NCBI GenBank assembly: GCA_017883205.1
Contig: JADGNZ010000014.1
Coordinates: 1 to 64,000 of the forward strand
From: Thermoanaerobaculia bacterium
Lineage (GTDB): Bacteria; Acidobacteriota; Thermoanaerobaculia; Gp7-AA8
Length of the DNA stretch: 64,000 bases
Direction: 5' to 3'
In this document: positions 35,467-52,516 of the stretch, in pieces
Position numbering within the stretch: position 1 is the stretch's first letter
Layout of the letters: every line of letters starts with the position of its first letter
Made by a program: the position numbers and the translations under genes
Notes under the pieces: model-generated
Database searches by the model: none
Told to the model about the DNA's origin: nothing
Seen by the model: the letters and a program-made list of their open reading frames with translations, nothing else

Positions 35467-35765
35467 GAAGTGAAATCAACATCTTTTCAGGCGATTTCGT
35501 CTTCTTTCAAGTGAAATCAACTTCTTTCCAAGTGATTTCGCCTTCTTTCAAGTGAAATCAACTTGTTTTCAAGTGATTTCGCCTTCTTTTGAGTGAAATC
35601 AACTTGTTTTCAAGTGATTTCGCCTTCTTTTGAGTGAAATCAACTTGTCTTCAAGTGATTTTGCCTTCTTTTGAGTGAAATCAACTTGTCTTCAAGTGAT
35701 TTTGCCTTCTTTTAAGTGAAATCAACTTGTCTTCCAGGCAATCCCACCAGCTTTTGAGTGAAATC
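35467..35765. repeat. 41-bp minisatellite 3 built from two ~20-bp half-units
   Basis: AGTGAAATCAACTTGTTTTC alternates with AGTGATTTCGCCTTCTTTTG. Marker bases at 35471, 35512, 35553, 35594, 35635, 35676 and 35717 are spaced by exactly 41, then the array decays. It is AT-rich unlike its surroundings. The following ~200 bases (35766-35971) hold no gene I can support. Confidence 0.95.
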
Positions 35766-35971: not shown

Positions 35972-36706
35972 CTATAGATCCACCAACAGCGGCGGCCTGA
36001 CCTCCCTCCGCTCCGTGAGCGCCATCGCCGCCTCGATCACCGCCCTTTGCCGCGCAGGATCGTGCGGGCGATCCAGCGGGTACCCATGCCGGAACGGTAC
36101 GAACAGCGCTCTTGGCGGGTGGACTTTCTCCGCCACTTCGCGGAGGAGGACGATGCAGACGGTCGTGATTCCGCGGCGTTCCAGTTCGGCGGCGATCAGA
36201 CTGACCGTCTGATTGCACATCGGTCAGACGGGGACGAGGAGGGCGACGTCGACGCTGTCCTCTACGAGTATTTGCGCGGCGGCCGGCGCAGAGTCGCGCA
36301 TCAGCCGGCCGGGTGCGGTGATCGAGCCCATGAACGAGAGGTGGCGCTCGCTCACGCGGCCGATCCGTCCGTCGCGCGCGAGCTCGTGCAGGCGGTCGAG
36401 CGGGAAGGCGAGGTTCGGATCGGACTGGATGCCGCTGTGGTCGAAGGTCTCGCTGCGATGCGTGTCGATCAGCGATGCGACATCGGCGTCGTGTGGGATG
36501 ACACGGAAGCTGGAGTCGCCGCCTTTGACGTCGTTATCGAACGTCGCCTGATCCGGCATCACCAACCCCGCCGTCGTCACCAGCGCCACCTTCGCCTCGG
36601 CCAGCGGTTTTCTCAGCGGCGTCCACGGAATCGGATCGATGCGGCGCCATGGATAGACCTTCAGGAAGGCGCGGGTGGCGAACGAGAACTCGGATGTGTC
36701 GCCCAT
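35972..36706 (-). CDS. Glycine/sarcosine/betaine reductase selenoprotein B-like protein
   Basis: Reading through one UGA (36224-36226) gives a 244-residue protein of the GrdB/PrdB-like family. The first part has RIDPIPWTPLRKPLAEAKVA, SSFRVIPHDADV, the FPLDRLHEL segment and SFMGSITAPGRLM. It then reads VDVALLVPV-(UGA)-PMCNQTVSLIAAELERRG. The UGA is in the family's redox motif, giving U-P-M-C, where relatives have Sec or Cys. The remainder ends EVRPPLLVDL. Full glycine reductase needs GrdA and GrdC, absent here. Homologues of this short type occur widely outside amino-acid fermenters and their substrate is unknown. Split annotation into two fragments would be wrong. Confidence 0.92.
36196..36226 (-). 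promoter_or_regulatory. Bacterial SECIS element with its UGA codon
   Basis: UGA is at 36226-36224, the 11-nt spacer at 36223-36213 and the stem-loop at 36212-36196: UCAGAC - GGUCA - GUCUGA, a perfect 6-bp stem with a 5-nt loop. Length, spacing and the GGUC loop equal those of the element at 33836-33866, though stem sequences differ entirely. Confidence 0.92.
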
Positions 36707-36788
36707 GCGCCGAGTGTATCGGTTCCGTCGTGGCCCTGCTTTCTGCCACGGGCGCGGTGAATTGCGCGCGGTGGGTTGTTTGGAAACG

Positions 36789-36848
36789 CCCCCTCATCCG
36801 CCTTCGGCACCTTCTCCCCCACAAAAAGCGTGGGGGAGAAGGCGCTCG
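36789..36848 (+). repeat. REP-like palindrome G1 (forward)
   Basis: CCCCTCATCCGCCTTCGGCA is followed by CCTTCTCCCCCAC-AAAAAGC-GTGGGGGAGAAGG. The stem is ~12 bp. It belongs to a widespread CCTCATCCG...CCTTCTCCC family, from memory. The gap 36707-37089 contains only G1, G2 and unrecognised sequence. Confidence 0.85.
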
Positions 36849-36955
36849 TGGGGAGATGGCGTCGCGAAGGGGTAGTGAAGCTAGGCAGTCGCGCGTTCGC
36901 GTGATCGCTGCTCGCGTGCTCCCGCGTTCAGTAGTCATGCCATGCTCTCCAATCG

Positions 36956-37013
36956 AGCGCCTTCTCCCCTCGTGCTTTTCGAGGGGAGAAGGTGGCGAAG
37001 CCGGATGAGGGGT
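36956..37013 (-). repeat. REP-like palindrome G2 (reverse)
   Basis: CGCCTTCTCCCCTCG-TGCTTTT-CGAGGGGAGAAGG is followed by CCGGATGAGGGG. It is an inverted partner of G1, about 110 bases away. Confidence 0.85.
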
Positions 37014-37089
37014 GCGGTGCAATCGACTGGCAGAAAGTTTCGGCGCCCCTTCGGCAACGTTGTCGCGACATGTGGCAGGATAAATACCC

Positions 37090-51576: not shown

Positions 51577-52516
51577 GGGGGGTGGGGGGTGGGGAGTGGT
51601 AGCGCGGGAATGATGCTTTTGTCAGCGATTGAGAGTCGCCGCCGAGCCGGCGGCGGTCCAGCCAGCGGGCCGCTGGCGTTACGTTCTTCCGATGTGGACG
51701 TTCATCGATGAGAACCTCGGCGCGAAGGTAGAGCAGTAGCGCCGTAGGAGTAGCGCCGCAGGAGTAGCGCCGCCGGCTCGGCGGCTGTACCGCAGGCGGC
51801 TCGCCTGCGACTTTGGTGTTCTCTCCTGCAGTCGCGTTCACCCGGCGTGCAGTCGCGTTTGTCGGCCGAAAAACGCGTTTATCCGCCGAAAAACGCGTTC
51901 ATCCGGCGTGCTGTCGCGTCCACCCGCCGTGCCGTCGCGTTTTACGGGCGTGCTGTCGCGTTCATCTGCCGTGCTGTCGCGTTTTACGGGCAGGCTGTCG
52001 CGTCCACCCGCCGTGCCGTCGCGTTTTACGGGCATGCTGTCGCGTCCATCCGGCGTGCTGTCGCGTTTTACGGGCATGCTGTCGCGTCCACCCGCCGTGC
52101 CGTCGCGTTTTACGGGCGTGCTGTCGCGTTCATCTGCCCGTGCAGTCGCGTTTTACGGGCGTGCTGTCGCGTTCACCCGCCGTGCCGTCGCGTTTTACGG
52201 GCGTGCTGTCGCGTTCACCCGCCGTGCCGTCGCGTTTTACCGGCGTGGCTGTCGCGTTCACCCGCAGTGCCGTCGCGTTTTACCGGCGTGCTGTCGCGTT
52301 CACCCGCCGTGCCGTCGCGTTTATCGGTCGAAAATCGTGTTCATCGGGCGTGCTGTCGCGTTTTTTAGCCGAAAATCGCGTTCATACTCCGGATTGTCGC
52401 GATCATCCGTCCAGCTGCGCGGCAACACGGGCGACCAGCTCGTAATATTTGCCAGTCGCTCTGAGGGAGCATGCTTTCTCCCAGTCCACCCCCGACCCCC
52501 CCACACCCCACCCCCC
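51577..52516. repeat. Split family A hairpin enclosing minisatellite 2 (copy A6)
   Basis: A G-rich arm (51577-51599) follows the transpeptidase stop and a C-rich arm (52485-52516) ends just before the NtrC-like stop. Between them lie small GC palindromes (GCCGCCGAGCCGGCGGC near 51640, repeated GGAGTAGCGCCGCA units near 51740) and minisatellite 2. No gene is seen in these 940 bases. Confidence 0.7.
51829..52395. repeat. 21-bp minisatellite 2
   Basis: CGCGTTTTACGGGCGTGCTG and CGCGTTCACCCGCCGTGCCG units (21 bp each) alternate for over 20 copies. GTCGCG marks at 51913, 51934, 51955, 51976, 51997 and 52018 are exactly 21 apart; a few units are 20 or 22 bp, and the ends carry a CCGAAAAACGCG variant. 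Several frames stay open but none has a ribosome site. Confidence 0.95.

What the first reader, a model, noticed from the sequence alone, without database searches (positions are those of the whole stretch)
35972..36706. GrdB-like selenoprotein with UGA-x-x-C and a matching SECIS
An in-frame UGA (36224-36226) lies in VPV-U-PMC-NQTV, the redox motif of the glycine-reductase selenoprotein B-like family. Eleven bases later is a perfect 6-bp stem with GGUCA loop. GrdB itself is an established selenoprotein. This short form has no GrdA or GrdC nearby, so its reductive substrate in a non-fermenting type of organism is open.
Basis: partly seen in the sequence, partly recalled or inferred. Interest (0 to 1): 0.85.

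Follow-up and report, generated by a model that had tools for sequence, protein, structure and literature searches.

The report
Orphan selenoenzyme distantly related to PrdB
This bacterial gene uses a stop codon to insert selenocysteine into a small redox protein that resembles one subunit of amino-acid reductases but seems to lack the known partner, and in some relatives it sits beside genes for making organic arsenic compounds, which hints at what it may do.

Summary
It is very probably a real selenoprotein gene. All 72 readable relatives (of 73 loci) carry UGA here. The stem pairs far beyond a synonymous-codon null (588 of 623 strict pairs; null 417.8, sd 8.9). The genome has SelA, SelB, tRNA-Sec and a SelD with its own in-frame TGA. 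"GrdB-like short form" is only partly right: PrdB is the nearest named family (122 bits) but below its cut-off (300), and the gene lies in a separate clade with UPxC[NH]Q instead of UGTCHR. The PrdA/GrdE partner was not found in this genome and in only 1 of 40 searched genomes that carry the gene. Ocean surveys already list Sec proteins of this superfamily as "proline reductase PrdB", so the selenoprotein as such is not new. New here, as far as my searches show, is the orphan clade plus a neighbour lead: 8 of 73 relative loci, against 0 of 57 control stretches, have arsenosugar-type genes nearby, three in near contact. The window has none of these.

The parts
35972..36706 (-). Coding sequence of the orphan PrdB-related selenoprotein, 244 aa plus stop codon TAG (35974-35972)
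   Evidence: Translation with TGA=U; Pfam GRDB; PrdB best in NCBIfam; only PF07355 match in the genome; alignment of 50 members
36224..36226 (-). In-frame UGA read as selenocysteine, residue 161
   Evidence: TGA in 72 of 72 readable loci of 73; equal coding constraint on both sides
36215..36217 (-). Codon of Cys164, the second member of the UxxC pair
   Evidence: Column invariant in the 50-row alignment; L037 (Ser) and L038 (UGA) outside that alignment differ
36195..36213 (-). SECIS-like hairpin: 7-bp stem (36213-36207 with 36201-36195), loop GGUCA (36206-36202)
   Evidence: 588 of 623 strict pairs against a synonymous null of 417.8, sd 8.9; energy test gives no support

Best explanation
A functional bacterial selenoprotein gene. 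SelB with Sec-tRNA(Sec) binds the hairpin that begins about ten bases after the UGA, and selenocysteine is inserted at position 161 (inferred from comparison and machinery, not measured). The product belongs to an orphan clade of the GrdB/PrdB superfamily. In the predicted structure Sec161 lies between a strand (154-158) and a helix that begins at Cys164 (164-177), the layout of a UxxC redox pair. I infer that it works without the pyruvoyl subunit (PrdA or GrdE) as a stand-alone reductase: the selenolate attacks the substrate, Cys164 resolves the intermediate to a selenenylsulfide, and a thioredoxin-like system regenerates it. The substrate is not known; organoarsenic metabolism is the best lead and is given separately as the novel case.
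For: UGA in 72 of 72 readable loci of 73. Stem far above a synonymous-codon null. tRNA-Sec, SelB, SelA and a SelD with an in-frame TGA in the genome. In 297 genomes of the phylum, strong SelA in 50 of 52 genomes with a UGA form and in 142 of the other 245. Tree: core clade (33 rows, 91/91, not starred) apart from PrdB (100/96) and GrdB (100/100). PrdB score below cut-off. PF09338 not found in the own genome and found in 1 of 40 genomes with the gene. Confident model, pLDDT 95.0, pTM 0.93.
Against: No Se incorporation or activity was measured. Folding energy of the hairpin is not unusual. Two genomes with a UGA form, G144 (91% complete) and G266 (77%), show no SelA match. Support for the core clade is 91/91, below the starred level, and only four PrdB and two GrdB references were used. 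PF09338 was run on 40 of the genomes behind 73 loci, whose completeness is not given. The stand-alone reductase mechanism is inference.
Confidence: 0.82

Rival explanations
1. It is the Sec subunit PrdB of a D-proline reductase, or GrdB of a glycine-type reductase, as the label 'proline reductase PrdB' of the ocean surveys suggests.
For: All 50 aligned members match the PrdB model and the GrdB-type models; length as PrdB; UxxC at the same place; surveys use the name PrdB.
Against: 122.1 bits against a cut-off of 300; outside the PrdB clade; UPMCNQ instead of UGTCHR; PF09338 absent from the own genome and from 39 of 40 genomes with the gene, whereas prdA lies two genes upstream of prdB in 3 of 5 PrdB-type plasmid loci (not); no GrdB N-terminal half.
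Confidence: 0.05
2. The UGA is an ordinary stop codon (or the gene is a decayed one) and only a 160-aa protein is made.
For: Folding energy of the hairpin is not unusual; mechanical ORF lists stop here.
Against: UGA, never UAA, UAG or a sense codon, in 72 of 72 readable loci; same coding constraint after the UGA; covarying stem; Sec machinery present.
Confidence: 0.02
3. It is a general thiol/selenol redox protein whose arsenosugar neighbours in a few genomes are incidental, for instance because such genes move together or because Sec-using genomes often hold both.
For: 65 of 73 loci and the window itself show no such neighbour; no neighbour family is shared across all phyla; in four annotated plasmid ArsS neighbourhoods this family is not listed (the PLSDB gene table is incomplete).
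Against: 8 of 73 loci against 0 of 57 control stretches, with a 4-base overlap (L054), direct abutment (L056), a gap of under 4 bp (L072) and divergent starts 141 bp apart from ArsS (L162), in at least four phylum-level groups by record title.
Confidence: 0.5

Closest known systems
D-proline reductase selenoprotein subunit PrdB (TIGR04483)
   Same: Homologous over residues 27-229; same length; Sec (or Cys) at the same aligned place; Cys three residues later
   Different: 122.1 bits against cut-off 300; UPMCNQ instead of UGTCHR; separate clade; no PrdA found
Glycine/sarcosine/betaine reductase component B selenoproteins GrdB, GrdF, GrdH
   Same: Homologous to their C-terminal half, including the UxxC site
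   Different: No N-terminal half of about 200 residues; UPMCNQ instead of UGTCTRCG; GrdA and GrdE not found (the GrdA search without positive control)
Cys-containing 'glycine/sarcosine/betaine reductase selenoprotein B family protein' of Roseomonas and Haematobacter plasmids
   Same: Homologous (36.6% and 35.7% identity), CPVCHQT and CPICHQT at the same place
   Different: Cys instead of Sec; only 4 of 7 stem pairs
'Proline reductase PrdB' selenoproteins of the Sargasso Sea and GOS surveys (PMC1088965, PMC2398784; passages seen)
   Same: Sec in UxxC, pfam07355 in GOS; probably includes this clade (inference; their sequences were not compared)
   Different: Named for D-proline reduction; PrdA is not mentioned in the GOS main text (0 occurrences)

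Membership tests
Bacterial selenoprotein | In-frame UGA conserved in relatives, coding sequence continuing after it | tested here: met
   72 of 72 readable loci of 73; equal constraint on both sides
Bacterial selenoprotein | Hairpin shortly after the UGA | tested here: met
   588 of 623 strict pairs, null 417.8, sd 8.9; the energy test alone fails
Bacterial selenoprotein | Sec machinery in the genome (SelA, SelB, SelD, tRNA-Sec) | tested here: met
   each over its curated cut-off
Bacterial selenoprotein | Selenium found in the protein | not testable with these tools
   Needs 75Se labelling or mass spectrometry
Pfam GRDB (PF07355) | Score over the gathering cut-off | tested here: met
   40.3 bits, cut-off 22, C-terminal part of the model (200-345 of 347)
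D-proline reductase PrdB (TIGR04483) | Score over the curated cut-off | tested here: not met
   122.1 bits, cut-off 300
D-proline reductase PrdB (TIGR04483) | Falls in the PrdB clade | tested here: not met
   Tree of 63 rows with four PrdB references
D-proline reductase PrdB (TIGR04483) | PrdA partner gene (sought as PF09338) | tested here: not met
   None in the own genome, 99.73% complete; the same search rings in 1 of 40 genomes, so it can find the family; that PF09338 covers PrdA is recalled
Glycine reductase GrdB (TIGR01917) | Full length of about 430 aa with N-terminal half; score over cut-off | tested here: not met
   41.1 bits, cut-off 602.2, model positions 200-416 only
Glycine reductase GrdB (TIGR01917) | GrdA in the genome | tested here: inconclusive
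   No match, but the search rang in no control genome
Arsenosugar-type gene cluster | ArsS, ArsM, TIGR04282 or TIGR04283 beside the gene in the window | tested here: not met
   No hit in the 64-kb window; met in 8 of 73 other loci; the rest of the window's genome was not searched for them
Fold of a solved protein | Clear match to a solved structure | tested here: inconclusive
   No Foldseek match at E 0.001; best VIA-align Z 9.2 among many unrelated folds

The most novel reading that the evidence does not exclude
The orphan clade is a selenoenzyme of organoarsenic metabolism, for example a Sec-dependent reductase that returns pentavalent methylated or ribosylated arsenicals to the trivalent state needed for ArsM/ArsS chemistry, and many environmental sequences labelled 'proline reductase PrdB' are this enzyme.
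Probability: 0.3. Interest if true: 0.78.

Novelty: new variant of a known kind. Interest (0 to 1): 0.55.

Why it matters
Sec proteins filed as 'proline reductase PrdB' are among the more abundant selenoproteins in ocean surveys, yet this clade has neither the partner (as far as searched) nor the active-site motif of a proline reductase. If those sequences belong here, a widespread selenoenzyme carries a misleading name. The core clade showed no Cys form at the Sec position in the loci read, so its chemistry seems to need selenium. The arsenosugar neighbours give a first testable idea of the substrate.

Tried and rejected
Gene-neighbour clusters: the largest shared cluster is generic ABC ATPases (10 loci); many others join closely related loci or are shadow frames in GC-rich DNA and were ignored. 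My ORF calling is a crude rule, not a gene finder. Family scans of 392 neighbour proteins from 57 of the 73 loci (output shows only the 25 most frequent families per batch) were swamped by ABC and FAD superfamilies; TIGR04283 was visible only in batch A3 (3 members).

Solved structures by sequence: none with one sequence at E 1, one chance hit with the profile. By fold: no Foldseek match at E 0.001; VIA-align best Z 9.2 (microcystinase C, rmsd 3.7, 158 aligned), next 8.1, then many unrelated folds, so I draw nothing from it.

Hairpin energy: no support. Rfam: none. Print: ten searches of the open-licence library listed no paper whose title or shown abstract joins this family to arsenosugar genes; I saw listings, and passages of eight papers; subscription papers are not held.

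PF09338 was run on 40 genomes (loci L010-L051 without L024 and L025), not on all 73 loci.

Facts mended: five, not four, stem pairs exceed the null; the ArsM-like parts of L018 and L073 are below curated cut-offs; L162 and L078 were assigned by phmmer only.

Full report
What is there. The window's minus strand from 36706 to 35972 reads ATG to TAG, 244 residues, if the UGA at 36226-36224 is read as selenocysteine. The coordinates in the finding are right; the strand was not given. The gene is the only match to Pfam GRDB in the genome. The genome is acidobacterial by inference: two of its same-family genomes have contigs whose lengths (63,619 and 155,479) equal those of contigs titled Acidobacteria.

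Is the UGA selenocysteine? Four lines agree. (a) Machinery: tRNA-Sec with anticodon tca, SelB 346.2 bits, SelA 476.6 bits, SelD 367.3 bits with one in-frame TGA, each over its cut-off. (b) Conservation: a scan of named genomes gave 73 loci. In 72 the Sec position could be read and all 72 have TGA; L078 ends before it. The six search patterns came from the window's own protein, so this reaches close relatives; one of them held the Cys reading of the motif, so the search did not favour UGA. In a second sample, 297 genomes of the phylum, 81 have a match and 52 of these have at least one UGA form. SelA is strong in 50 of those 52 and in 142 of the other 245 (Fisher p 7e-9; I judged 'strong' by hand from best E-values and got 192 genomes, the tool's tally over the cut-off is 191). 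The two exceptions are G144 and G266. (c) Coding constraint is alike before and after the UGA. (d) The hairpin: 100 core sequences (window, 72 loci, 27 from the phylum sample) give 89 distinct ones; 588 of 623 stem positions are strict Watson-Crick, 609 with G-U, and 75 of 89 sequences pair at all seven places. Redrawing synonymous codons 500 times gives 417.8 (sd 8.9, maximum 444) strict pairs. Five pairs exceed the maximum of the null; two lie on second codon positions and say nothing. The pair 18-26 changes as A-U, G-C and U-A in step with Thr, Ala and Ser codons, and a C-G / G-C swap flanks the loop GU (75 of 89, null 32.8, maximum 45). Related sequences are not independent, so the null overstates significance. 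Against this stands the energy test, which is flat.

What family? NCBIfam ranks PrdB first (122.1 bits, cut-off 300), then GrdH, GrdF and GrdB-type models at 57-41 bits; all 50 aligned members match these five models. Pfam GRDB passes, on the last part of the model. In a tree of 63 rows the core clade (33 rows) is one group with 91/91 support (90% of 200 bootstrap trees; not starred). It stays apart from four PrdB sequences plus L145 (100/96) and from two GrdB sequences plus L137 (100/100). The motif differs: UPxC[NH]Q in most of the core, UGTCHR in PrdB (in two of the four references the U is Cys), UGTCTRCG in GrdB. Exceptions in the core include L026 and L032 (CSQ), L027 (CTQ), L037 (UPMS) and L038 (UPMU). 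More distant relatives in the phylum have Sec, Cys, Ser, Glu or Asp in this place; the twelve non-UGA ones keep 3 to 5 of the seven stem pairs (G-U counted), while 7 of 13 distant UGA ones keep all seven and the rest 4 to 6 (insertions near the motif shift the register in a few).

Is it a proline or glycine reductase? PF09338, which by my recollection covers PrdA and GrdE, is not found in the own genome and is found in 1 of 40 genomes that carry the gene. That one hit shows the search can find the family; it lies in a 278-aa frame beside frames that look like ABC transporter permeases and ATPase (the transporter reading is mine). Three of five PrdB-type plasmid loci have prdA two genes upstream; of the other two, L158 has sparse annotation and L145 shows no prdA within 6 kb. 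GrdA was not found, but that search had no positive control. So I do not file it as PrdB or GrdB.

Structure. AlphaFold2 with the 50-row alignment gives pLDDT 95.0, pTM 0.93. Residue 161 sits between a strand (154-158) and a helix beginning at 164. No solved relative stands out. The mechanism (attack by the selenolate, resolution by Cys164, recycling by a thioredoxin-like system) is inference from this layout and from general UxxC chemistry.

A lead to function. No neighbour is conserved across the loci as a whole. But in L054 (Myxococcales) the gene overlaps by 4 bases a TIGR04282 gene followed by TIGR04283, with ArsS (438.9 bits, cut-off 300) on the other strand. In L056 (Proteobacteria) a fused TIGR04282-TIGR04283 gene ends directly before it. 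In L072 (Bryobacteraceae) a TIGR04283 gene ends under 4 bp before it. L018 (Gemmatimonadetes) has TIGR04283 4.4 kb away and, 0.8 kb away, a radical SAM protein fused to an ArsM-like methyltransferase domain (231.2 bits, cut-off 263); L073 (Acidobacteria) has a similar fusion 2.5 kb away (182.6 bits, contig ends within it). L035 has a TIGR04283 piece cut by the contig end (128.9 bits, cut-off 182) 4.6 kb away. With seeds fixed, two more turned up, by phmmer only: L078 (TIGR04282-like) and L162 (genome G266: an ArsS-like gene starting 141 bp from this gene in divergent orientation, then TIGR04282-like and TIGR04283-like genes). NCBIfam names these families as arsenosugar biosynthesis genes. Count at E 1e-15: 8 of 73 test loci (696 kb) against 0 of 57 control stretches (590 kb: 35 from genomes with the gene, 21 short ones from the own genome, and the window), one-sided Fisher p 0.008; if each genome held one such cluster at a random place 0.23 loci would be expected.

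Caveats to the lead. Six of the eight were seen before the test was designed. The test set leaves out 13 of the first 73 loci and 14 of the 27 later ones as near-copies, judged by eye from contig lengths and relatedness. G266 shows no SelA match in its 77%-complete assembly. 65 loci and the window have no such neighbour. Of five plasmid ArsS neighbourhoods fetched the other way round, four are annotated and none lists this family (one search has no annotation). Hence a probability of only 0.3 for the arsenic role.

What is known. Passages of PMC1088965 and PMC2398784 list 'proline reductase PrdB' with UxxC as an abundant ocean selenoprotein (42 and 235 Sec sequences; 110 Cys homologues in GOS), and PMC1794560 lists Sec 'proline reductase' in Anaeromyxobacter and Geobacter. 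The 2026 review PMC13188914 (passages) names prdB-prdC operons and the SAO organometallic system; its passages on arsenic and operons name no link of this family to arsenosugars. So Sec proteins under this name outside Stickland fermenters are not new. The separate clade, its motif, the missing partner and the arsenosugar neighbours are what I add, with no claim beyond the searches named.

Noticed in passing
window 35468-35734: Tandem array of a 41-bp unit, 6.5 copies, 94% match, beginning about 240 bp beyond the 3' end of the gene.
   Followed up: no
window 51832-52385 and 1-486: Further tandem arrays: a 42-bp unit (about 10-13 copies) and a 21-bp unit (23 copies).
   Followed up: no
window 36780-37020: By eye: long inverted repeats with CTTCTCCCC / GGGGAGAAG cores between this gene and the next; possibly a dispersed repeat element.
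   Followed up: no
L152 (own genome, C35:91437-92372): SelD match with one in-frame TGA, so probably a second selenoprotein of this genome.
   Followed up: partly
L038 and L140: UxxC became UxxU: a second in-frame TGA at the Cys place (UPMUNQ, UPIUHQ), possible double-Sec forms; L037 has Ser there.
   Followed up: no
L018:1752-4223 and L073:4670-7105: Radical SAM/SPASM domain fused to an arsenite-methyltransferase-like domain; all named models below their cut-offs.
   Followed up: partly
L124-L129, L131: Subfamilies of the same fold in the phylum with Ser, Glu or Asp in the Sec place; perhaps non-redox relatives.
   Followed up: partly
L145:5977-6690 (Peptoclostridium acidaminophilum plasmid): A gene annotated prdB with no prdA annotated in the 12.6-kb stretch.
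   Followed up: no
L147:8317-9153 (genome G023): Lone PF09338 (GrdE/PrdA-type) frame beside frames that look like ABC transporter genes.
   Followed up: no
L018, L021, L072, L073: DUF3179-like genes (name recalled) in the neighbourhood of four loci, three of them also with arsenosugar-type genes.
   Followed up: no
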